DNA of 64,000 nucleotides. Source: an uncultured Lachnospiraceae bacterium (GTDB lineage: Bacteria; Bacillota; Clostridia; Lachnospirales; Lachnospiraceae). The notes beneath the pieces are model-generated. The model saw only the letters and a list, made by a program, of their open reading frames with translations, was not told where the DNA came from and searched no databases. Location: the NCBI GenBank assembly GCA_902801515.1, contig CADCII010000004.1, positions 37,064 through 101,063 on the forward strand. The letters run 5' to 3'. The translations under genes and the position numbers were made by a program. This document shows, one piece after another, positions 4,153-50,567 of the stretch (position 1 is its first letter; the number at the start of each line of letters is the position of its first letter).

Positions 4153-5517
4153 TTAGTTTTTAAACGAATGGATCGGAGCGGGGATCCTTCCCTGCCTCCT
4201 GATAAAGTCTTCGCAGGAGAATCTGTTCACCGGCATGATCGGCGCATGTCCGAGCAGCCCTCCGAATTCAACACTCTCGCCCACGCCCTTGCCGATCACG
4301 GGGATCAGTCTGACAGCAGTCGTTTTCTGATTGACCATGCCGATCGCCATCTCATCGGCGATAATGCCGGATATTGATGATGCTTTCGTGTCACCCGGTA
4401 TGGCGATCATATCCAGGCCCACCGAGCAAACACAGGTCATTGCCTCCAGCTTCTCGAGATGAAGCGCCCCTGCCTCCACAGCGTCGATCATACCCTGGTC
4501 TTCCGACACGGGAATGAAAGCGCCGGACAGTCCGCCCACATAGCTGGACGCCATGACGCCGCCTTTCTTGACCTGGTCATTGAGCAGAGCGAGCGCTGCT
4601 GTCGTTCCCGGAGCACCTGCATATTCCAGTCCGATCTCGCAGAGAATATCCGCAACCGAGTCACCGATCGCCGGAGTCGGAGCCAGAGACAGGTCTATGA
4701 TGCCGAACGGTACGCCCAGTCTTCTGGATGCTTCCTGCGCGACCAGCTGGCCGACACGGGTAACCTTAAACGCAGTCTTCTTGATGGTCTCGCAGAGAAC
4801 TTCGAAATTCTCTCCTCTTACCGATTCCAATGCGGTCTTTACAACGCCGGGACCGGATACGCCGACATTGATCACCGTATCTCCCTCGGTCACGCCGTGA
4901 AATGCCCCTGCCATGAACGGATTGTCATCCGGAGCATTGCAGAATACCACGAGTTTCGCACATCCCAGAGAATCCTGTTCTTTTGTCAGCCTGGCCGTCT
5001 CAAGTATGATCTCGCCGAGCAGACGGATCGCATCCATATCGATTCCCGTCTTCGTGGATCCGACGTTGACTGATGAACAGACAAAATCCGTGGACGCAAG
5101 TGCCCTGGGGATGGCACGGATCAGGTTCTCCTCTGCAGGAGTCATTCCTTTCGATACCACAGCGGAGAAACCGCCCAGGAAATTGACACCGACTTCCTTT
5201 GCGGCTCTGTCAAGTGTCTGTGCGATACTGACGAAATCCTCCGGCGTCCTGCATGCAGAGGCGCCGACCAGTCCGATGGGCGTAACAGAGATCCTTTTGT
5301 TGACAACAGGAATCCCGTACTCCCTCTCGATCTCATTTCCGACCTTAACCAGATCTTTCGCGCAGGTCGTGATCTTTGAATAGATATTTTCATTTAGCTG
5401 AGCCAGATCCGAGGTAATACAGTCAAGAAGGCTGATGCCCATGGTGATCGTACGGACGTCCAGATTCTCCTGGGTGATCATCTTGACTGTCTCGGTTGCT
5501 TCCAGAATATTAATCAT
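4153..5517 (-). CDS. UPF0210 (PFL-like, DUF711) family protein
   Basis: A 454-residue cytoplasmic protein recognised as the UPF0210 family from its N-terminus ([28 protein letters not shown]), the conserved KRISVTPI stretch, and glycine-rich segments such as [13 protein letters not shown] and [13 protein letters not shown]. Members are about 450 residues, so it is complete. The family has a fold related to glycyl-radical/pyruvate-formate-lyase barrels but its reaction is not established, and no radical glycine motif is obvious. The gene follows the ACT-domain gene after 30 nt. This pairing is common in Firmicutes and suggests that the ACT protein senses a ligand, perhaps an amino acid, for this enzyme. 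Confidence 0.88.
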
Positions 5518-40909: not shown

Positions 40910-43105
40910 TTATCTTCTGACGATATAGAAAACGATGACCCCCAGGATCAGAAGCATGCCGATACAGGCAAACATCATGGCAAATGAGAAGTTTGCAGTC
41001 AGGGACCCGTATCCCTCTCTGATCTCATCCCTCTTCTTATGGAAGAAACTGAGCGTGCCCTGTGCCTTTCCTGTAATGACACGCTCCCGGAGTACTGTTT
41101 TCCGGCTCAGCATGATCAGCGCGTCTGTCCCCATGCTCAGCACTTTCAGGACTGCAGCAAAGAGATAGAACACCATGAAGGCTGCTTTTTTCAGAAGGCG
41201 GTCTTCTCCTGTCTGAGGCACAGTGTTGGTCATCACCATCATAAGGCCTCTGCATACTCTTGTCAGAACCTTATTTTCCCCGAATACAGAGAGAATCGTT
41301 CCGAATATAGCCGGCAGCCACTTTGTGAGCAGCGGACGGTACAGCAATTCTTCCAGGTCAAGCCATGCAGGCCACCGGTCTGCATAGACCCTCTCTCTCG
41401 TCATCAGCACCCGGCGGATAAACACAAGGTACAAAAACAGTCCGATACCCAGGGAGATCAGTCCGCCTGAAATGCATTCAAAACTCAGCGGCCTGAATTC
41501 TTCAAGCACGCCGGCATGCCCCGTCATCAGGGAAGCAATTGCTCCGAATACCGGCTTCTGCCCCAGCAGGATAAACAGGATGGAGGTACCGAATACGACC
41601 AGTGTGCTTCCTGCGTTCATGTAAGACTTCCCGGCCTTGTCGAAGACCTCCTGCTTTCTCAGATCTTTGTTCTTTTCAACAAACACACAGATAAACAGTT
41701 TCAGCATATATGCGAAAGTGCATCCTCCCGAGATCAGGAAGATCCATTCGATCACATGCAGGTCATGCGCCTGGGCAAGTGTTATGGCGGCTCCTTCTCC
41801 GGCCTCATGGATGCCGGATGTGATGGCTTCATGAAGCAGTGTCTTGCTGGCATATCCGTTGAACATCGGAACACCGCTGATTCCCACCAGTCCAAGGAAA
41901 AATGAGATCTTCAGAAGTGTCTTGTTCCTGCCGAATCCGCGGATCTCATTCAGATCCAGCGCCTCTGCGTTCATGACGACAACGCCGGCGGCGCAGAACA
42001 GGCAGAGCTTAAGCATGGAATGATTTACCATGTGAAGCATGGTACCTGACATTGCCATGGCTGCATGGTGACCGAGAGATGAAAAGCCGCCCACTATGGT
42101 CCCGCCTGCAGTTTCACCCGCACCCTGAGCCGTAAGCAGTACTGTCATACCGATTCCGGTAAGTATAAACCCGATCTGTGACATGGAAGAACAGGCAAGT
42201 GTCCTCTTCAGGTTGACAGAAAACAGGGCAAGAAGCGCTCCAAGGAACATGGTGATGGTCCCAAGGATCAGCACAGTCCATCCAAACAGGGCATTTTCAA
42301 GAAACACTTCCACTGTTGTCATCAGAATGCCGTAGATTCCAACCTTGGTCAATACGCCTGACAGCAGCGCTGAAGCCGGCGCCGGTGCGACCGGATGTGC
42401 CTTCGGAAGCCATACATGGACAGGGAACATACCGGCCTTGCAGCCAAATCCAATCAGAATGCAGATACCAGCCGCGAGAAGCCGTCCGGAGCCTGCAGCG
42501 TGCCGGGCGCTGAGCGCTGAAGGAAGTTCTGCATACATCAGAGTACCTGTCTCATACTGCAGCAGTGCAAGTCCCATAAACAGCACCAGACCGCCGATGA
42601 TGGCAATAAACAGATAAGTGTAACCAGCACGGATCGCACCCTGTGTCTCTTCGTGCATGACCCAGGTGAAAGACGTCAGCGACAGGATCTCAAAGAAGAC
42701 GAATGTTGTCATCAGATCTCCCGAAAGCATCACGCCCTGCGTTGCCCCAAGTGTTGCCAGGACAAAAAGATAATACCGGTTCAGGTTCTCCGGCTCATGC
42801 CTGAAATATTCCTGTGAGAACAGAGTCGTAAACGCCCACATCAATGCTGTCACAAGGCTGTACACACTCCTGAAGCCATCTGCTCTCAGACTCATTCCGG
42901 AGGCAAAAACATGCGGAATGTCCAGATTCAGCAAAGAGGATGCCCCTCCGCGGATAACCGTCAGCAGAAGAAGGACCGACAACGCCAGTTCGATAAATGT
43001 AGTAATTACAGCGAATGAATTTCTTGTTTTCTCACTCTTTTTCCCAATGATGTAATCTGTGATCCCGAACCCAAACGGCAGGAACACCAATAAAGCAGTC
43101 AGCAT
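40910..43105 (-). CDS. Large antiporter-like subunit (MrpD/NuoL type), fourth copy
   Basis: 731 residues, about 17 helices; longer than the usual 480-500 because of a C-terminal extension (after about 520) with further helices, as in NuoL/MrpA-like proteins. Core motifs of the proton-pumping antiporter family: helix-5 Glu in FVFFEILSLTSFTWV, helix-7 Lys in GFGCKAGMFPVHVWLPKAH, PVAPAPASALLSGVLTKVG, and the later Lys in NHSMLKLCLFCAAG. Each such unit is thought to carry one ion path. Last of ten genes in the operon; it starts 17 nt after the preceding gene. Confidence 0.88.
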   Translation of the reverse strand: MLTALLVFLPFGFGITDYIIGKKSEKTRNSFAVITTFIELALSVLLLLTVIRGGASSLLNLDIPHVFASGMSLRADGFRSVYSLVTALMWAFTTLFSQEYFRHEPENLNRYYLFVLATLGATQGVMLSGDLMTTFVFFEILSLTSFTWVMHEETQGAIRAGYTYLFIAIIGGLVLFMGLALLQYETGTLMYAELPSALSARHAAGSGRLLAAGICILIGFGCKAGMFPVHVWLPKAHPVAPAPASALLSGVLTKVGIYGILMTTVEVFLENALFGWTVLILGTITMFLGALLALFSVNLKRTLACSSMSQIGFILTGIGMTVLLTAQGAGETAGGTIVGGFSSLGHHAAMAMSGTMLHMVNHSMLKLCLFCAAGVVVMNAEALDLNEIRGFGRNKTLLKISFFLGLVGISGVPMFNGYASKTLLHEAITSGIHEAGEGAAITLAQAHDLHVIEWIFLISGGCTFAYMLKLFICVFVEKNKDLRKQEVFDKAGKSYMNAGSTLVVFGTSILFILLGQKPVFGAIASLMTGHAGVLEEFRPLSFECISGGLISLGIGLFLYLVFIRRVLMTRERVYADRWPAWLDLEELLYRPLLTKWLPAIFGTILSVFGENKVLTRVCRGLMMVMTNTVPQTGEDRLLKKAAFMVFYLFAAVLKVLSMGTDALIMLSRKTVLRERVITGKAQGTLSFFHKKRDEIREGYGSLTANFSFAMMFACIGMLLILGVIVFYIVRR

Positions 43106-43122
43106 ATCTTTTTCCTGATTTC

Positions 43123-44586
43123 TTAGATCACTCCTGCAGCTATCTTACCGAGAAAATCCATGATCGGTCCCGGAAAGATGCCAAGCAGTACATTAACAGC
43201 TGTAAAGATCCCGATGGGAAGAAGCATGCGCCACCCCGGATCTGTAAGTTCTTTCCCTTTCCACCTGTTCTCATCCGACACAGGGAAGAAAGCTCTCAGT
43301 GTTACAGACAGTGTATAGATCGCGCAGAAGAACGCCGCCACGATCAGGCACGCTGTTCCGATGTAGGAATAAACGGTTCCTGCCTGCGCGCCGGCAAGCA
43401 GAAGATTCCATTTGGATATAAACCCGCACAGCATCGGAATCCCCGTCAGGGACAGGGCGCCGAGTGTATAGAACGTAAATGTCAGGGGCATCTTCTTCCC
43501 CGCCCCATTGATCTCATAAACATAACTGCGCCCGCTCTGATGCATGAACGCACCGGCACACAGGAACAGACTCATCTTAATGACGCCGTGGAACAGCATG
43601 TGAGCCATACCGGCTGTGTACCCTGCCGGATTCAGCAGCATCACACCGAACAGCATATAACTCAGGTTGCTGACTGTAGAGTAGGCAAGCCTTCTCTTGA
43701 AATGTCTCTCCCTCAGTGCTCTTCCAGCTGACAGCACCAACGTCACAAAAGAGACAGTGACCGCCACTTTCTGTGCCCAGGTACCTGCCAGATGCTGAGG
43801 GCTGAACACATACCAGGTAAGTCTCATGATGGCAAAAACGCCCGAATTTACTACCGCGACTGCATGCAGAAGCGCCGTTACGGGAGTGGGTGCTACGGAC
43901 GCTGTCGGAAGCCATCTGTGAAACGGCATGACTGCAGCCTTTACGCCGAATCCGAAGAAACCAATCAGGTAGATCAGCAGCATAAAATTCTCCGGAAGCT
44001 CATGAAATGAGTGGCCGCCAAGTGTAAATGACGGTGTGGTATACATCGTCGTTACCATGACTGTGATCAGGGCAGCCGCGGCTCCTCCTATCACATACCC
44101 CGCATATACCCGTCCTGCATACATGGATTCGCTGTTCTGATAATGCGTGACAAGCGGGATCGTGACCAGCGACAGCATCTCGTAGAACACATAAAGCGTA
44201 AGAATGTTTGCAGAAAAACAGACGCCCAGGGCAACACCGTATGTCATGATATAGAAAGCAAAGAACACATTTTTATGCTCTGCGTTCCCCATATACTCAA
44301 ACGCGTACAGGGTGACAAACGGCCACATCAGGGAGACCATTCCGGCAAAGAGCATGCCAAGCCCGTCCAGCTGGAATGCGATACGGTATCCTCTTGTAAA
44401 TGAATAAACCGTAAAATCCCCCACCGGTCCGCCAAGGATCACGATCCAAACGATGACCGACGCAGCGCATGCGATAACCTCACACCAGATCCGCTTGCCC
44501 GGTACGCTCTTTGGCGCGGACACCAGCAGCCTGGCCCCTCCGAGGATCGGAAGCAATATAGCGATTATGATAAGAATATTTCTCAT
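43123..44586 (-). CDS. Antiporter-like subunit (MrpD/NuoM/N type), third copy
   Basis: 487 residues with about 14 helices. Family motifs: helix-5 Glu in LYVFYEMLSLVTIPLV, helix-7 Lys in GFGVKAAVMPFHRWLPTA, SVAPTPVTALLHAVAVVNSG, and Lys in FHGVIKMSLFLCAG. It diverges from the other copies at the helix-8 segment, where HAVAVVNSG replaces SGIIAKAG or SGVLTKVG, so its ion path may differ. It probably pumps or exchanges protons and sodium in the membrane arm of the complex. Confidence 0.88.
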   Translation of the reverse strand: MRNILIIIAILLPILGGARLLVSAPKSVPGKRIWCEVIACAASVIVWIVILGGPVGDFTVYSFTRGYRIAFQLDGLGMLFAGMVSLMWPFVTLYAFEYMGNAEHKNVFFAFYIMTYGVALGVCFSANILTLYVFYEMLSLVTIPLVTHYQNSESMYAGRVYAGYVIGGAAAALITVMVTTMYTTPSFTLGGHSFHELPENFMLLIYLIGFFGFGVKAAVMPFHRWLPTASVAPTPVTALLHAVAVVNSGVFAIMRLTWYVFSPQHLAGTWAQKVAVTVSFVTLVLSAGRALRERHFKRRLAYSTVSNLSYMLFGVMLLNPAGYTAGMAHMLFHGVIKMSLFLCAGAFMHQSGRSYVYEINGAGKKMPLTFTFYTLGALSLTGIPMLCGFISKWNLLLAGAQAGTVYSYIGTACLIVAAFFCAIYTLSVTLRAFFPVSDENRWKGKELTDPGWRMLLPIGIFTAVNVLLGIFPGPIMDFLGKIAAGVI

Positions 44587-44619
44587 CAGACAGACACTTT
44601 CTTTAAGAGAACTCAGATC

Positions 44620-46062
44620 TTAAAACCCGAGTGATTTCAGTATGGTTACGCCAAATATCCCCATTATAAGAGCGACACAGCACAGCAGTATCATCGGAAC
44701 TGTCATGAGAGCGGACGGTTCTCTGCTCTCTGTATTAATCTGGGCATCCTTACCGGGGAAGAATGATTTAAAAGCCACCGGCAGCAGATATCCGGCAGTA
44801 AGCATTGCGGATATCAGGAGGATCACAACAGGAAGTACACTCAGAACGCCCATTCCGTTGGAGATCGTGCTTGCTGCAATCACCCATTTACTCAGGAAGC
44901 CGCCCATCGGCGGTATACCTACAAGAGACAGAGAAGCCGCAGTAAAGCAGCACATGACCACCGGCATCTGTTTCCCGATCCCGACCAGGTCATCTACTCT
45001 CCTCTTGCCAAGCTTATAGATAAAAACGCCGGCACACAGGAACAGACATCCCTTGGAGGACGCATGACTTACGACGTGGAGAAGCGCTCCCTGAACACCG
45101 CCATCTGTCAGCATGGACAGTGCCAGCATGATGTACGAGATCTGGCTTACAGTTGAATAAGCCAGTCTCTTCTTCATGTTCTTTTCCAGGAAAGCCATCA
45201 TCGAGCCCATAAAGACAGTAATCATGGCAAGTATCATCCACGCGTACTGGACCCAGGTCCCGCGGATAAAATCAGCGCCGACCGAGTAATAGACCAGACG
45301 GATCACTACGATAACGCCTGCCTTCGCTATGATGCCGGACAGAAGTGCTGAAGCCGGTGCCGGAGCAATGGGATGCGCCGTCGGCAGCCAGCCATGCATG
45401 GGATACATACCCGCTTTTGTACCGAAACCGACGATTGCGACAAACACAGCGATCAGAAGGATCGTCTCATGACCTGATACCATAGATGTATCCAGGAATC
45501 CGCCGGCGGTAAACTGCCTTCCTGCCATGCCATAGAAATATACAAAGAATACTCCGAACAGTCCCATGAGAGCTCCGCCCACAGAATAAAACAGGTATTT
45601 CATTCCGGCAGCGACCGCTTCCTTCGTTCCTTCGTGAAGGACCAGCGGAACAGTCGTAAGAGTTGCCATCTCAAAGCAGAAATATACCGTGACCAGATTG
45701 GCAGACGAGCAGACAGCGATCAGCGCGCCGAGCGAAATATAGAAAAATGCGAAGAAAACCGGCTGGTCCTCCTCCACTTTCATATACTCAAACGCATAGA
45801 ATGCGGTACAGGTGTACAGAATCAGCACTGCTGCCAGGAACACCCTGCCAATATTGTCCAGTGCGAAAGAGAAGGTCACGTTTTCAGAAAAAGAAAACAA
45901 AGTGATCTCACCACCGCGAATAATCAGTGCCGTTCCGAGAATCGCCGTGACCACGGATATCAGACTGTACCGGACGCACAGACTCCTGAAGGAATCCGCT
46001 TTTATGCAGGACGCCAGTATTCCCGCTATGATCGGAAACAGTATCGTCAGGATAATGAACAT
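44620..46062 (-). CDS. Antiporter-like subunit (MrpD/NuoM/N type), second copy
   Basis: 480 residues from the ATG at 46062, which follows GGGAGAG; an upstream in-frame ATG would add a hydrophilic tail. About 14 helices. Motifs: helix-5 Glu in VYFCFEMATLTTVPLV, helix-7 Lys in GFGTKAGMYPMHGWLPTAHP, IAPAPASALLSGIIAKAG, and Lys in SHASSKGCLFLCAG. It is a full-length antiporter module in the middle of the operon. Confidence 0.88.
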   Translation of the reverse strand: MFIILTILFPIIAGILASCIKADSFRSLCVRYSLISVVTAILGTALIIRGGEITLFSFSENVTFSFALDNIGRVFLAAVLILYTCTAFYAFEYMKVEEDQPVFFAFFYISLGALIAVCSSANLVTVYFCFEMATLTTVPLVLHEGTKEAVAAGMKYLFYSVGGALMGLFGVFFVYFYGMAGRQFTAGGFLDTSMVSGHETILLIAVFVAIVGFGTKAGMYPMHGWLPTAHPIAPAPASALLSGIIAKAGVIVVIRLVYYSVGADFIRGTWVQYAWMILAMITVFMGSMMAFLEKNMKKRLAYSTVSQISYIMLALSMLTDGGVQGALLHVVSHASSKGCLFLCAGVFIYKLGKRRVDDLVGIGKQMPVVMCCFTAASLSLVGIPPMGGFLSKWVIAASTISNGMGVLSVLPVVILLISAMLTAGYLLPVAFKSFFPGKDAQINTESREPSALMTVPMILLCCVALIMGIFGVTILKSLGF

Positions 46063-46084
46063 AACTCTCTCCCTCTCTTCTCCA

Positions 46085-47605
46085 TCACAAAAACATTCCC
46101 AGTCCACGGTATATCATGTCTGATATCACCCAGGAAAACATCCCCAGAAAGATGTTTCCCGTTGTCAGGATTATTCCCGCAAGGATATATCCCGCGCGGC
46201 CCCTGTCAAAACGGATTGCCTGTTTCGGGGAAGGCTTTGAAGTATCTCCAGAATCTGAATAAATACGGATCAGTGTCCGGATAAAGTACAGTGCGTTCAG
46301 CAAGGAGCTGACAGCAAGCGCGATCATCACAAGCAGGATCTTATAAGGCTGTGTAGTCATGATCGCTGCCTGTCCGAATATCAGTTTCGACGCGAATCCG
46401 GCAAAGATCGGAATTCCTATCATTGACAGTGACCCGACCGTGAAAAAGAACCCCGCAAGGGTATCTCTGCGCCCGCTTCCCTGAAGCTCATGAAACTTCA
46501 GGCTGTCCCCGGATACTTCCGCAAGATAAGGCGTCGTCAGGAACAGCAGGCTCTTGGTCGCCGCATGGGCAAAGATCTGAAACAGCGCTGCGTTAAATCC
46601 GGCAAATGTACCGAGTCCGATCCCCATGTAGATATAACCAATCTGAGCTGCTGACGAGAATGCGACCATCTGGTTGATGGTGGATGCTCTCATGGCTGAT
46701 ACAGACCCGATCACCATTCCGCAGATTCCAAGGATAAACAGGATCTTTAATATCGGAGTCTGACGAAGTACATCTACGCCGATCGTACGAATGTAGATCT
46801 TGAACAGCAGGAACAGATACGCTTTGGAGACCAGCGAGCTCAGCACAGATCCGGAAGTCGGCGTTGCCCAGCCATAGGTATCCGGCATCCAGAAATGGAA
46901 AGGAAACATACCGCTCTTGATCCCCAGTCCGATGGTGAGAATACCAATTGAAAGAGACAGCGCAGGGATCGAAGAAGGATCCGCCGCCACAGACGCGAGG
47001 CTCTCTCTCATCGGAACCATCAGAAGATGTCCTGAGATGTCATACAGCAGTACCACTCCCAGAAGAAACAGACCGCTGCCCACAAGGTTCATGATCATAT
47101 AGCGGACTGCGGCAAGGGTAGTCCTTCCGATCTCACGGACGATCAGTATACCGCAGCTGGTAAGTGTCAGAATCTCCAGGAACACATACCCCGTAAAGAT
47201 GTCATTGGTCCACGCCATGGCCATGAGAGCAGCTGTCATCAGATTCAGCAGACTGAAATAGAGATTCTGCTTGCTCTCATCAATATCCTTACAGAGAAAA
47301 TGATATCCTGCCAGGATACTGCACATAAGGACTATCAGAAACAGCAGGGCGATCAGCGCCTCAAGAACTCCCGCGCGGATCTCATTTCCCCAGGGTGCGG
47401 GAAACTCACCCATGGGATAAGTAAAAGCCTTGCCTGTATTGATTGCGTATCCAAGTACACAGCTGACCATAACGATCAGGACCGATTCATATGCAATTGT
47501 ATAATTCCGCGCGCTGCGCGCCGGCAGCATCATGCACAGCACTCCCGAGAACAGACTCAGCACCACTGTGAACAGCGGAAAATTCCAGATTATACTCATT
47601 TGCAT
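46085..47605 (-). CDS. Antiporter-like subunit (MrpD/MbhH type), first copy
   Basis: 506 residues with about 14 helices. Motifs: helix-5 Glu in GYVFLEILTLTSCGILI, helix-7 Lys in GLGIKSGMFPFHFWMPDTYG, WATPTSGSVLSSLVSKAYLF, and Lys in AHAATKSLLFLTTPYL. Directly after mrpC, the place of MrpD/MbhH in known clusters, so this is the best candidate for the orthologous D subunit. Its start overlaps the mrpC stop (TAATG). Confidence 0.88.
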   Translation of the reverse strand: MQMSIIWNFPLFTVVLSLFSGVLCMMLPARSARNYTIAYESVLIVMVSCVLGYAINTGKAFTYPMGEFPAPWGNEIRAGVLEALIALLFLIVLMCSILAGYHFLCKDIDESKQNLYFSLLNLMTAALMAMAWTNDIFTGYVFLEILTLTSCGILIVREIGRTTLAAVRYMIMNLVGSGLFLLGVVLLYDISGHLLMVPMRESLASVAADPSSIPALSLSIGILTIGLGIKSGMFPFHFWMPDTYGWATPTSGSVLSSLVSKAYLFLLFKIYIRTIGVDVLRQTPILKILFILGICGMVIGSVSAMRASTINQMVAFSSAAQIGYIYMGIGLGTFAGFNAALFQIFAHAATKSLLFLTTPYLAEVSGDSLKFHELQGSGRRDTLAGFFFTVGSLSMIGIPIFAGFASKLIFGQAAIMTTQPYKILLVMIALAVSSLLNALYFIRTLIRIYSDSGDTSKPSPKQAIRFDRGRAGYILAGIILTTGNIFLGMFSWVISDMIYRGLGMFL

Positions 47606-47985
47606 TACCTGTCCTCTTTTTCATGTTTGGACAGATTGTAGATATCGTCCAGATCCAGAGTGTGATAGCGCTTATAAAGGCGCACACTCAGTGAAAGCAT
47701 AACAGCGGTTACAGACACGGAGACGACAATACCTGTCAGCACCAGACCCGCGGGAACCGGGTTAATGTAGGCAGATACCTCCTGCACTCCGTTTTCGATA
47801 ATGGGAGCTTTTCTTCCCCTGATATATCCCATGGAGGCAAGAAGAAGAAACGTTCCCGTATCCATTATATTCATCCCGATCAGCTTCTTGATCAGGTTCC
47901 TGTGAAACAGCAGCGTGGAGAAACCGACAGCAAACAGGATGATCGCCGCCGCTTCCTCATAATTGGCAAGCAGATGCCGTATCAT
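47605..47985 (-). CDS. Mrp/Mbh antiporter subunit C (NuoK-like)
   Basis: 126 residues from the ATG at 47985. Three membrane helices in the NuoK/MrpC pattern: AAAIILFAVGFSTLLFHRNL, IKKLIGMNIMDTGTFLLLAS, and VSAYINPVPAGLVLTGIVVS. The conserved stretch near the third helix identifies MnhC/MbhG. It overlaps the upstream gene by 4 nt and the following D subunit by 1 nt. It links ion movement between the B and D parts of the complex. Confidence 0.9.
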   Translation of the reverse strand: MIRHLLANYEEAAAIILFAVGFSTLLFHRNLIKKLIGMNIMDTGTFLLLASMGYIRGRKAPIIENGVQEVSAYINPVPAGLVLTGIVVSVSVTAVMLSLSVRLYKRYHTLDLDDIYNLSKHEKEDR

Positions 47986-48929
47986 ATTTGTCCTCCTATG
48001 CTCCCTCTCCGGAACAGACTGTAGAATCCGAACATTGTGCATCCGACCACACAACCGACCGCGATATCAAGCGGAAGGATCATCCCGCCCGAAAAGATCG
48101 CTCCCGGAGTCCCCTTTGGAATATGGTTTTCCAGACCGTTTGCTCCCATGAAGAATACGTACCCCTTCGCAAAACTGTAGAACCCCAGAGATACGAACGT
48201 AACAATATTACTGACCTTCAGCGTGAAGAACCGGTCTGCCTTGTCAAAACCAAACGCCACAGAGAACAGAATCATGCCTGCTCCCAGAACAGCGCCTCCC
48301 GAAAATCCACCTCCGGGTGAATTCTGTCCGTTCAGCAATATATAGATCCCGTACAGCAGGATGCAGGGAACGATCACCGCGCATACCAGTCTCAGCACCG
48401 GGTCTGTTGACAGGTCGAAATAAGTATCCGTCCTGACTGTGTAATAATCCTCATAATCTGACCGCTGATTCTTTCTGTCAATTCTCAGCAGGATCATGAC
48501 ACAGATCAGAGCAGTAAACAGCACATGGGACTCGCCAAGCGTATCAAACGCCCTGTAATCCAGAATCATTCCGGAAACGATATTGACAGCCCCGGTTTCC
48601 TCAAGACCGTCTTCCACATAGCGGCTGACGACTTCCACTGCTCTTGGATTCTCCGCACCGTACTCGGGCAGAAGACTGACCGTATAAAGGAGTACCAGCG
48701 TCAGCATAATACAGGAAATAAACGCTATCACAAGGTATATGGTACGGAACCTCGCACGATCACGTCCGATCGCTTCCAGCACTTCTGGGCGGTGGTCATA
48801 TTCTTCTTCTGCAGCTCGGGTGATCTTCTTAAGTTCACTGTGGGAGACGTCAGGCTTATTGAAGTTGTCCAGGATACCATCCATCACATCCTGATCACCG
48901 TACAACCAGGCCAGGAATCTCTTCTTCAT
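47982..48929 (-). CDS. Fused MbhE/MrpB-type antiporter subunit
   Basis: 315 residues. A 60-residue charged N-terminal region (NKPDVSHSELKKITRAAEEE) is unusual. A MbhE-like part (about 62-155) follows, with VNIVSGMILDYRAFDTLGES, then a MrpB/MbhF part (about 175-315) with YGIYILLNGQNSPGGGFSGG and GMILPLDIAVGCVVGCTMFG. In many organisms these are two genes or the C-terminus of MrpA. It overlaps both neighbours by 4 nt. Confidence 0.87.
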   Translation of the reverse strand: MKKRFLAWLYGDQDVMDGILDNFNKPDVSHSELKKITRAAEEEYDHRPEVLEAIGRDRARFRTIYLVIAFISCIMLTLVLLYTVSLLPEYGAENPRAVEVVSRYVEDGLEETGAVNIVSGMILDYRAFDTLGESHVLFTALICVMILLRIDRKNQRSDYEDYYTVRTDTYFDLSTDPVLRLVCAVIVPCILLYGIYILLNGQNSPGGGFSGGAVLGAGMILFSVAFGFDKADRFFTLKVSNIVTFVSLGFYSFAKGYVFFMGANGLENHIPKGTPGAIFSGGMILPLDIAVGCVVGCTMFGFYSLFRRGSIGGQI

Positions 48930-49264
48930 CGTCCTGTCCTCCTCTTCTTTCCGGAAGAACTCTTTGCATTCTTTTCATTATGCATCTTCTGTTCTTCCCT
49001 GCGGTCAGAAGGGTCAACCTCATCCTCTTTCCGGATCTTTTTCAGCGTCATCAGAAACAATGTGCCGCTGACACCTGCGCCGACTGCTGCCTCTGTAATA
49101 CCAAGGTCCGGACTCTCCATCAGTATCCATACCACAGACATCATAAAGCTGTATGCCATGAATATGATCACTGCCTGAAGCAGATTCCCGGTCAGGTTCA
49201 CCGCGACCGCGCATACGATCAGGAGAATCAGAAGAATAATCGTTATTATCTCTCTTGGATCCAT
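48926..49264 (-). CDS. MbhD-like (DUF4040) antiporter subunit
   Basis: 112 residues from the ATG at 49264. Three hydrophobic helices with VNLTGNLLQAVIIFMAYSFM and the diagnostic SPDLGITEAAVGAGVSGTLF, which equals part of the MrpA C-terminal domain and free-standing MbhD. A basic, Lys/Arg-rich cytoplasmic tail ends the protein. It occurs in the same order as in membrane-bound hydrogenase clusters. Confidence 0.87.
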   Translation of the reverse strand: MDPREIITIILLILLIVCAVAVNLTGNLLQAVIIFMAYSFMMSVVWILMESPDLGITEAAVGAGVSGTLFLMTLKKIRKEDEVDPSDRREEQKMHNEKNAKSSSGKKRRTGR

Positions 49265-49278
49265 TATCCTTCCCTTCC

Positions 49279-49614
49279 TTATTTCTTGCCGTAATCCGTT
49301 CCAAACCGCACATATCGCGCAATAAACGGATTCGTATTTACCTCGATCCTGCTCAGAAAATGTGTACTGACAGGTGATGTCAGCCACATAAACAGAATCA
49401 GCAGGAACAGTTTCAGACTGTCAAGATTCAGTCCGGAGGAAATGATCATAGCAAAGACAACACATCCAAGTCCGAAAGAATCTCCGATACCGGATGCATG
49501 CATTCGGTTCATTACAAATCCAAGCCTGAACAGACCTGCAACTTCCAGTATAAATGCGAGTATGCCGCAAAAAAGTATCACCGCGGTGATCCAGAAACGA
49601 ATCCATTCAATCAT
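49279..49614 (-). CDS. Mrp antiporter subunit G
   Basis: 111 residues from the ATG at 49614, which follows GGGAGGTG. Three helices with the MnhG/MbhC segment AGLFRLGFVMNRMHASGIGD, where an R-M-H/A pattern is typical, and FLLILFMWLTSPVSTHFLSR. It overlaps the mrpF gene by 8 nt. Small accessory subunit needed for antiporter assembly. Confidence 0.9.
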   Translation of the reverse strand: MIEWIRFWITAVILFCGILAFILEVAGLFRLGFVMNRMHASGIGDSFGLGCVVFAMIISSGLNLDSLKLFLLILFMWLTSPVSTHFLSRIEVNTNPFIARYVRFGTDYGKK

Positions 49615-50068
49615 GAGGCACCTCCCTCTGAGGCACTGTTTCCCTGCTGTTTTTATCCTGCTGCAGACTGCCTGCGGCCGGCACACTGGCCTGTGTCTCT
49701 TTCGTCTGTCCCAGGGATACATCCTGAGCCCCAAATGCCTGTACTCCCGGTGGCTGCTCTCCTGCCTTCATGCCTTCATCTTCATCCGTCAGATTAAGTC
49801 TGCGGATATAAACAGACGCCAGGATAAGGACCGTAAGGAAACTGAGCATTGCGTAGATAATCGCGATATCTGTCAGATAACTCTCGTCAAGCATCTGTGA
49901 CAGGATCGCTATCGTACAGATCACCAGGGTCCCGATCATATTGATGCACAGGATGCGGTCTATGATCCTGGGTCCGATGATACTTCTGATCAGGATGATC
50001 CCTATAAGGACTGCCATAACAGTCAACGCGCCTGTAAACAGATACTGATATGCCAGATCGACTGTCAT
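49607..50068 (-). CDS. Mrp antiporter subunit F with a long hydrophilic tail
   Basis: 153 residues. Residues 1-90 are the normal MrpF/MbhB core with three helices (LIRSIIGPRIIDRILCINMI, TDIAIIYAMLSFLTVLILAS). Residues about 95-153 are a Gln/Glu/Pro-rich tail not usual for this subunit (about 90 residues in most). It overlaps mrpE by 4 nt and mrpG by 8 nt. Confidence 0.9.
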   Translation of the reverse strand: MTVDLAYQYLFTGALTVMAVLIGIILIRSIIGPRIIDRILCINMIGTLVICTIAILSQMLDESYLTDIAIIYAMLSFLTVLILASVYIRRLNLTDEDEGMKAGEQPPGVQAFGAQDVSLGQTKETQASVPAAGSLQQDKNSRETVPQREVPHD

Positions 50069-50538
50069 TCTGACCTCCCTTCAATATGCATCCTTCCCAG
50101 GAGCTTCACAAAAGAAGAAGAATCCAGTCCCTCTCCCATAGCCGGGATCAGGCAATGGATCTTAAAATGATTCCCTTCCTGTTCGACGGTATAAGTCCCC
50201 GGAGTCAGTGTGATGGAATTGGCAAGGACCGCATTCTGAAACATCGTATGAAACTCCGAATCAAACTCTACCAGCACCGGATCCGGATGTTTCTCCGGAT
50301 TTACAATAATACCGGCAACCTGAATGGCCGCCTTGACGATCTCCTTCACAAGATTCAGGAAATATACAACCGCCCAGGGCAGATGCTTCCATATAAGAAG
50401 TTCTATTCGCAGTGAGTATCCGAATGCGTATCTTGCAAACAAAAAAACAACGGCAGCTATCACTATTCCCAGAATCACGAGTTCCGTAGTAACGCGGCCG
50501 TTAAGAATTATCCACAATAAGAAAAAGAATGTAACCAT
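50065..50538 (-). CDS. Mrp antiporter subunit E
   Basis: 157 residues from the ATG at 50538; a GTG at 50547 inside the AGAGGTG site is less likely. Two N-terminal helices, then a cytoplasmic domain. Diagnostic MnhE segments are LVKEIVKAAIQVAGIIVNPE and NAVLANSITLTPGTYTVEQEG. First gene of the ten-gene antiporter operon, with a clear promoter upstream. Confidence 0.9.
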   Translation of the reverse strand: MVTFFFLLWIILNGRVTTELVILGIVIAAVVFLFARYAFGYSLRIELLIWKHLPWAVVYFLNLVKEIVKAAIQVAGIIVNPEKHPDPVLVEFDSEFHTMFQNAVLANSITLTPGTYTVEQEGNHFKIHCLIPAMGEGLDSSSFVKLLGRMHIEGRSE

Positions 50539-50567
50539 TACCTTCACCTCTTAAATCCTTCCGACAG

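What the first reader, a model, noticed from the sequence alone, without database searches (positions are those of the whole stretch)
40910..50538. Mbh-like antiporter operon with four tandem large pump subunits and no hydrogenase
Seen: gene order E-F-G-MbhD-(MbhE+MrpB fusion)-C-D-D-D-D. The first seven match the order of the antiporter part of membrane-bound hydrogenases, but three further D-like subunits (480, 487 and 731 residues) follow in place of hydrogenase genes, and no complete MrpA is present. Each carries the helix-5 Glu and helix-7 Lys of proton pumps. Known: complex I uses three such units in series. Inference: a high-gear cation/proton exchanger, or the membrane arm of a redox complex whose soluble part is encoded elsewhere.
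Basis: partly seen in the sequence, partly recalled or inferred. Interest (0 to 1): 0.7.

Follow-up and report, generated by a model that had tools for sequence, protein, structure and literature searches.

The report
Sodium-proton antiporter with four pump units
A gut bacterium carries a ten-gene membrane ion exchanger of a known type, but with four pump modules instead of the usual one or two and no electron-driven engine attached; relatives have three or even five, so modules seem to have been inserted repeatedly during evolution.

Summary
On the minus strand (50547..40910) lie mrpE-F-G, mbhD, an mbhE+mrpB fusion, mrpC and four intact antiporter-like genes (506, 480, 487, 731 aa). They are the genome's only PF00361 proteins; PF00346, PF01058 and PF00146 found nothing, so a hidden complex-I- or hydrogenase-type partner is very unlikely. 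All ten genes, in this order, are in 13 of 27 named related loci, most others being cut. D1-D4 are old orthologous lines, not recent copies. Best reading: a stand-alone group-3 Mrp (CPA3) cation/proton antiporter; D4 plus MbhD/E probably supply the parts of a split MrpA, and D2, D3 are extra middle units. Genomes of the same class and order hold further clusters with three, four and five units and no redox gene in the stretch; extra units arose in at least three ways. The genome has Rnf and a V-type ATPase close to a sodium type. Group-3 Mrp with several mrpD is in print; stand-alone four- or five-unit forms did not turn up in nine paper searches. A higher H+/Na+ ratio is untested.

The parts
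50065..50547 (-). mrpE (MNHE); start GTG 50547 or ATG 50538
   Evidence: PF01899 E 2.3e-27
49607..50068 (-). mrpF; Asn at the position of MrpF Asp35
   Evidence: PF04066 E 1e-10
49279..49614 (-). mrpG
   Evidence: PF03334 E 2.9e-18
48926..49264 (-). mbhD (part of the MrpA C-domain); Glu58 aligns with MBH MbhD Glu69
   Evidence: PF13244 E 1.6e-19
47982..48929 (-). mbhE + mrpB fusion, 315 aa; Asp129 and Glu133 align with MrpA Asp776 and Glu780 (numbers by motif spacing)
   Evidence: PF20501, PF04039
47605..47985 (-). mrpC (NuoK-like) with the MBH-type Asn/Asp pair
   Evidence: PF00420 E 4.9e-21
46085..47605 (-). D1, antiporter-like subunit in the MrpD position, 506 aa
   Evidence: PF00361 E 2.4e-37
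44620..46062 (-). D2, middle antiporter-like subunit, 480 aa
   Evidence: PF00361 E 1e-55
43123..44586 (-). D3, middle antiporter-like subunit, 487 aa, sister line of D2; TM8 Lys is Asn here
   Evidence: PF00361 E 2.6e-48
40910..43105 (-). D4, terminal antiporter-like subunit, 731 aa, with a long C-terminal tail (possible lateral helix about 584-671, then a last TM)
   Evidence: PF00361 E 1.6e-44

Best explanation
A stand-alone (redox-free) group-3 Mrp-type (CPA3) cation/proton antiporter. E, F, G, MbhD, MbhE/B and C form the cation path. D1 sits next to it as MrpD does. D4 is the distal unit in the place of the MrpA N-domain, and D2 and D3 are inserted between them, so four pump units form one row. 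Shown: gene content, order, conserved charged residues, absence of redox partners at Pfam sensitivity, old duplications. Inferred: one complex, one row, Na+ as the cation, reversible exchange tying the circuit of Rnf and a predicted Na+ V-type ATPase to the proton gradient (under acid conditions most likely Na+ in, H+ out). Inferred and weaker: more units mean more H+ per Na+.
For: Families. Only PF00361 proteins of the genome; no PF00346, PF01058 or PF00146. Layout kept: all ten genes in 13 of 27 named loci; 8 of 38 regions and 15 of 20 regions hold four D behind the fused gene. Of 88 loci searched with HycD, HycE, HycG, NuoH and Ensifer NuoB/NuoD, only L048 and six MBH-like loci hit. TM5 Glu, TM7 Lys and TM12 Lys in 16 of 16 counted loci for each of D1-D4. 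MbhD Glu and MbhE Glu in 34 of 34 loci where found, of 41. Orthologous D lines. D4 model: top solved match MrpA 7qru_A, E 3.2e-19. Rnf and V-type ATPase side by side; K subunit best match is the E. hirae sodium ATPase ring. Precedent: the P. furiosus stand-alone group-3 Mrp is reported to take Na+ in and pump H+ out as pH drops (PMC8415708, passages).
Against: No transport or complex data. MrpF Asp35, called invariably conserved and tested by D35L in PMC7419157 (passages), is Asn in 32 of 32 four/five-unit loci where F was found, so the cation route may differ. D3 lacks the TM8 Lys in 5 of 16 loci, the window included. The D4 tail is low-confidence and its length does not rise steadily with unit number (medians 267 for three, 303 for four, 283 in the one five-unit row measured). 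L029 and L042 show no mrpC. Rnf is in all 19 genus genomes, with or without the operon, so it gives no specific link. References placed weakly in the trees (long branches).
Confidence: 0.7

Rival explanations
1. The four D proteins do not share one complex: alternative antiporters are built from one set of small subunits with different D partners.
For: No structure of a four-unit row without a redox module is known to me (recall). D3 has a weakened residue set. The lateral-helix-like tail is poorly predicted.
Against: Order D1-D2-D3-D4 in every complete fused-type locus read; only the last D carries the long tail in the four-unit loci (tails after TM12 Lys 87-117 aa in D1-D3, 248-381 in D4), as expected of one distal unit.
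Confidence: 0.15
2. All four units are in one row but the exchange ratio is that of ordinary Mrp; the extra units serve proton collection, stability or another cation such as K+.
For: D3 TM8 Lys loss in 5 of 16 loci; MrpF Asp35 to Asn; the Mrp stoichiometry is stated as unknown, with 2 H+ per Na+ proposed (PMC9568556, passages).
Against: Each unit keeps the TM5 Glu, TM7 Lys and TM12 Lys, as if each still moves protons.
Confidence: 0.25
3. It is the membrane arm of a redox complex whose soluble part lies elsewhere in the genome.
For: Homology to MBH and complex I membrane arms; D3-like subunits occur in a rhizobial complex I cluster; G028 holds both the operon and a PF01058 gene.
Against: No PF00346, PF01058 or PF00146 protein in the genome while 11 of 14 control genomes ring for each family; 0 of 14 genus genomes with the operon have PF01058, while 3 of 5 without it do.
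Confidence: 0.04

Closest known systems
Group-3 stand-alone Mrp of Pyrococcus furiosus (PMC8415708, passages)
   Same: No mrpA gene; MbhD/E-type proteins; no redox module; E, F, G, B, C, D set; proposed Na+/H+ exchange for pH control.
   Different: One MrpD there, four antiporter-like subunits here; its MbhD and MbhE are fused there, MbhE and MrpB here. Its MrpF was not compared.
Group-1 Mrp (Bacillus, Anoxybacillus; PDB 7qru, 6z16)
   Same: Same subunit types; the D4 model matches MrpA best.
   Different: MrpA is split here; two extra middle units; MrpF Asp35 is Asn here.
MBH and MBS of Pyrococcus (PDB 6cfw, 6u8y)
   Same: Same order of the first genes; MBH-type Glu in MbhD; MbsE is also an MbhE+MbhF(MrpB)-type fusion (PMC8415708).
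   Different: No hydrogenase or reductase module here.
Complex I with four or five pump subunits: 2M, rhizobial green complex I, Ca. Manganitrophaceae Complex_I_3 (PMC9040806, passages)
   Same: Raised number of antiporter-like subunits; locus L048 fits the description of green complex I.
   Different: Those are redox-driven complex I; this has no NuoB, NuoD or NuoH homologue.
Peptoclostridium acidaminophilum E-F-G-mbhD-mbhE-B-C-D-D-D cluster
   Same: Same order; no redox gene in the 29-kb stretch.
   Different: Three D; mbhE and mrpB not fused.

Membership tests
Mrp / CPA3 antiporter, group 3 | Subunit types E, F, G, B, C, D and the MrpA C-domain (MbhD/E) | tested here: met
Mrp / CPA3 antiporter, group 3 | No mrpA gene, only mrpD, sometimes several copies (definition in PMC8415708) | tested here: met
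   PF00361 only in these four proteins
Mrp / CPA3 antiporter, group 3 | Stand-alone, no respiratory module (group 3 also includes forms inside respiratory complexes) | tested here: met
Mrp / CPA3 antiporter, group 3 | Acids of the Na+ path in the MrpA C-domain (MBH-type MbhD Glu, MbhE Asp/Glu) | tested here: met
Mrp / CPA3 antiporter, group 3 | MrpF Asp35 (reported invariably conserved in PMC7419157; not part of the definition by gene content) | tested here: not met
   Asn in 32 of 32 four/five-unit loci where found (of 41) and in 20 of 21 three-unit loci (L105 differs); Asp in 5 of 5 MBH-like loci
Mrp / CPA3 antiporter, group 3 | Na+(K+)/H+ exchange activity | not testable with these tools
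   needs vesicle assays
Membrane-bound hydrogenase (group 4 [NiFe]) | Large and small hydrogenase subunits and NuoH-like anchor | tested here: not met
   PF00346, PF01058, PF00146: none; PF00374 was not searched
Complex I (incl. 2M and green forms) | NuoB, NuoD, NuoH homologues | tested here: not met
Complex I (incl. 2M and green forms) | Three or more antiporter-like subunits | tested here: met
Complex I (incl. 2M and green forms) | Lateral helix lengthened by about 26 aa for an extra unit (PMC9040806) | tested here: inconclusive
   tail medians 267, 303 and 283 for three, four and five units, overlapping ranges; Mann-Whitney p 0.0007 for four over three, not corrected for kinship

The most novel reading that the evidence does not exclude
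A family of redox-free Mrp antiporters in Clostridia in which the number of pump units in one row (three, four, five) was raised several times independently by inserting modules at different places, and in which that number sets the H+/cation gear ratio: natural variants of one machine with different gears.
Probability: 0.35. Interest if true: 0.75.

Novelty: new variant of a known kind. Interest (0 to 1): 0.55.

Why it matters
The H+/Na+ stoichiometry of Mrp is stated as unknown (PMC9568556, passages), and why complexes of this family hold one to four pump units is tied in print to energy needs (PMC7419157, passages). Redox-free relatives with three, four and five units would let one measure what each added unit does without the complication of electron transfer. 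Physiologically it suggests how fermenters whose ion pumps look Na+-based, and which lack an Ech-type hydrogenase, may build or relieve a proton gradient.

Tried and rejected
Redox arm: rejected by genome searches, by relatives and, where 5 of 32 genomes have PF00346 (G128, G204, G340, G379, G394). All five carry three-unit clusters, and G394 also has its own MBH-like cluster L121. Redox queries hit 7 of 88 loci: L048 and the six MBH-like loci.

Recent duplication: rejected; window D pairs are 19.8-33.3% identical and the D lines are orthologous.

Helix length counts the units: tested, weakly supported at best; the five-unit row does not continue the trend. L103 (four units, 349) against its three-unit relative L106 (300) goes the expected way.

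Conserved neighbour as partner: flank ORFs of 65 loci were clustered (the listing shows groups of four loci or more, at most 25, read by eye). No redox gene was recognised among them; ORFs that matched my redox queries were set aside by that script and are covered. What recurs is local: an amino-acid-permease-like gene upstream in 6 loci, a regulator-like gene upstream in 8, genus synteny downstream.

Na+-circuit link by co-occurrence: Rnf (PF03116) is in all 19 genus genomes, so it does not separate those with and without the operon.

Natranaerobius as a described case: the 2009 paper (passages) concerns a single-subunit antiporter.

Prior description: nine searches of open-licence PMC papers showed no stand-alone four- or five-unit Mrp. 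Swartz 2005 and Chadwick 2018 were not seen, only cited in others. Papers were seen as passages or as search listings; none was read whole.
Full report
WHAT IS THERE. The minus strand from 50547 to 40910 encodes mrpE, mrpF, mrpG, mbhD, an mbhE+mrpB fusion, mrpC and four intact antiporter-like proteins: D1 506 aa, D2 480, D3 487, D4 731 (families). Genes E to D1 overlap or lie at most 11 bases apart, the D genes 17-33 bases, so one operon is likely. Downstream is a convergent LD-carboxypeptidase gene; upstream, on the same strand, are a 436-aa protein without a Pfam match, a DUF58 protein and a MoxR-type ATPase. Promoter-like sites are no more than in shuffles (8 against 10.4); terminator-like sites are (23 against 8.7), but every one listed lies inside the gene cluster, so I give them no meaning.

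GENOME CONTEXT. The window is part of contig C4 of a 3.08 Mb, 94-contig genome scored 100% complete and 3.46% contaminated. PF00361 hits five places, all in these four proteins. PF00346 (NuoD/large subunit), PF01058 (NuoB) and PF00146 (NuoH) hit nothing, while 11 of 14 control genomes ring for each. The nearest named relatives are Lachnospiraceae MAGs, several titled as rumen or RUG. One contig carries V-type ATPase genes followed directly by a six-gene Rnf cluster. The ATPase K subunit's best solved relative is the E. hirae sodium ATPase ring (2bl2, E 2.5e-29); the stretches LPGTQG and AMVETYAIL are identical in the printed alignment. That these hold Na+ ligands is recalled, not from a call.

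CONSERVATION. The search for related loci gave 27 named loci, 39-89% identical in D3. Thirteen of 27 show all ten genes in the same order (L018, L019, L021, L025, L026, L032, L035, L036, L037, L040, L041, L043, L044); L042 shows nine, without mrpC; most others are cut by contig ends, L029 also without mrpC. In 61 genomes (own plus 60 relatives), 14 of 19 genus genomes have a strong match to the fusion protein and none of these 14 has PF01058; of the 5 without it, 3 have PF01058 (Fisher p 0.010, not corrected for kinship or MAG gaps). Outside the genus G028 has both; G024, G043, G052 and G058 have the operon type without PF01058.

A SERIES OF CLUSTERS. A profile of the fusion protein hit 35 of 391 class genomes at E <= 1e-20 and 87 of 392 order genomes at E <= 1e-15. 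I read 38 regions (three are from genomes and one is a second place in G394). Eight hold four D behind the fused gene (L085, L086, L087, L089, L090, L091, L118, L120). Eighteen hold three D (D1 of L094 is broken, the third D of L112 is only 418 aa in the stretch); in L107, L108 and L117 two of the three are D4-like and tailed. L105 has three D, two of them nearest the rhizobial type. L103 has four D with mbhE and mrpB unfused; L104 has a broken third D. L119 has five intact D. Five (L109, L111, L115, L116, L121) have redox partners. L084, L088 and L097 are cut. Twenty further regions of the order: fifteen four-D (L129-L143; L143 cut upstream), one more five-D (L126, cut upstream of mrpB), L127 with four D of another make-up, L128 with three, L144 cut, L145 with redox genes. 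These 20 were chosen by me from the 87. Five-unit clusters thus occur in two genomes of one genus (G058, G458). A check with six redox queries over 88 loci hit only L048, L109, L111, L115, L116, L121 and L145.

PHYLOGENY. A 135-row tree and a 100-row bootstrap tree agree. D1 and D3 of the fused four-unit clusters form clades (100/97 and 100/99); D2 has 96/77. D4 is a clade once the terminal units of L119, L126 and L127 are included (100/99). D2 and D3 are sister lines (96/90), next to the middle unit of three-unit clusters. The five-unit clusters read D1, D1', D1'', D2, D4 and L127 reads D1, D1', D2, D4, so there the added units come from the D1 side. L103 matches its three-unit relative L106 at d1, d2 and d4, with a deep-branching extra unit at d3. 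L107 and L117 (and L108) have a doubled terminal unit. So at least three routes to extra units exist. Placement of the NuoL/M/N, HyfB and Mrp references is weak (long branches).

RESIDUES. TM5 Glu, TM7 Lys and TM12 Lys are present in 16 of 16 counted loci for each of D1-D4; TM8 Lys in 16 of 16 for D1, D2 and D4 but 11 of 16 for D3, where the window has Asn. His425, Glu453 and Lys469 of D4 are kept in 16 of 16 D4 and in 13, 13 and 14 of 14 terminal subunits of three-unit clusters; they are absent or rare in D1-D3 (Lys469 position: Lys in 2 of 16 D1). MbhD Glu58 aligns with P. furiosus MBH Glu69, which PMC7419157 pairs with MrpA Glu706; it is Glu in 34 of 34 four/five-unit loci where found. The MbhE Glu (MrpA Glu780) is also 34 of 34. 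MrpF Asp35 is Asn in 32 of 32 such loci and in 20 of 21 three-unit loci (L105 differs), but Asp in 5 of 5 MBH-like loci (41 four/five-unit loci were offered, several cut). This looks like a shared mark of the redox-free family and a warning that the cation route may differ. PMC7419157 reports D35L inactive, and says that changes to E and N in B. subtilis were mild (passages).

STRUCTURE. AlphaFold of D4 from 16 rows: mean pLDDT 73.9; residues 584-671 are mostly helical but mostly below 60, then comes a last TM. Foldseek's best match is MrpA of B. pseudofirmus (7qru_A, E 3.2e-19, TM 0.65 by query length, rmsd 14.9). Length after the TM12 Lys: median 267 in 17 three-unit, 303 in 19 four-unit, 283 in one five-unit, 349 in L103, 221.5 in four MBH-like terminal subunits, E. 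coli NuoL 214 and HyfB 265. The four-over-three difference (p 0.0007) is not corrected for kinship.

KNOWN BEFORE. [quoted passage not shown] PMC5703873 (passages) lists cyanobacterial duplications and says that clusters of anaerobes differ markedly. PMC9040806 (passages) describes complex I with four and five pump subunits and a 26-aa helix insert; L048 fits its rhizobial green complex I. PMC4478896 (passages) describes Ech plus Rnf in rumen butyrivibrios. Paper searches showed no stand-alone Mrp with four or five units.

HOW IT PROBABLY WORKS. The cation enters through E/F/G and MbhD/E and couples at C and D1; charge changes run along D1-D2-D3-D4, each moving protons; D4 with its tail holds the distal end. 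In a cell whose ion pumps look Na+-based (Rnf, V-type ATPase; whether Rnf pumps Na+ here is inference) and which lacks Ech-type genes, the complex would exchange Na+ for H+ to set cytoplasmic pH and a proton gradient. Direction and ratio are inference.

Noticed in passing
L119 (G058) and L126 (G458): Five tandem intact antiporter-like genes behind the small-subunit genes (L126 starts at mrpB because of the contig end).
   Followed up: yes
L127 (G486): Four-unit cluster of another make-up (D1, D1', D2, D4), related to the five-unit ones.
   Followed up: yes
L107, L108, L117: Clusters with one D1-like and two long D4-like subunits, both with C-terminal tails.
   Followed up: partly
L029 around 1792-1799; L042 around 4259-4274: No mrpC gene between the mbhE-mrpB fusion and D1, and none found in the locus.
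   Followed up: partly
L125 5987-19947 (own genome contig C7): V-type ATPase genes followed directly by an Rnf cluster.
   Followed up: yes
L092, L094, L095, L098, L101, L102, L103, L106 upstream: A 636-684 aa protein that looks like a GAF/PAS regulator (by eye) lies 108-560 bases upstream of the cluster, same strand.
   Followed up: no
L087, L129, L130, L131, L132, L134 upstream: An amino-acid-permease-like gene (by eye) lies 391-824 bases upstream, same strand.
   Followed up: no
L048 9032-21296: Ensifer plasmid nuo cluster with two D-like genes where NuoL would be, as described for rhizobial green complex I.
   Followed up: partly
window 47982-48929, residues 1-60 of the fusion: N-terminal extension of about 60 residues before MbhE, with a recurring RF..WL.G..D start in this family.
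   Followed up: no
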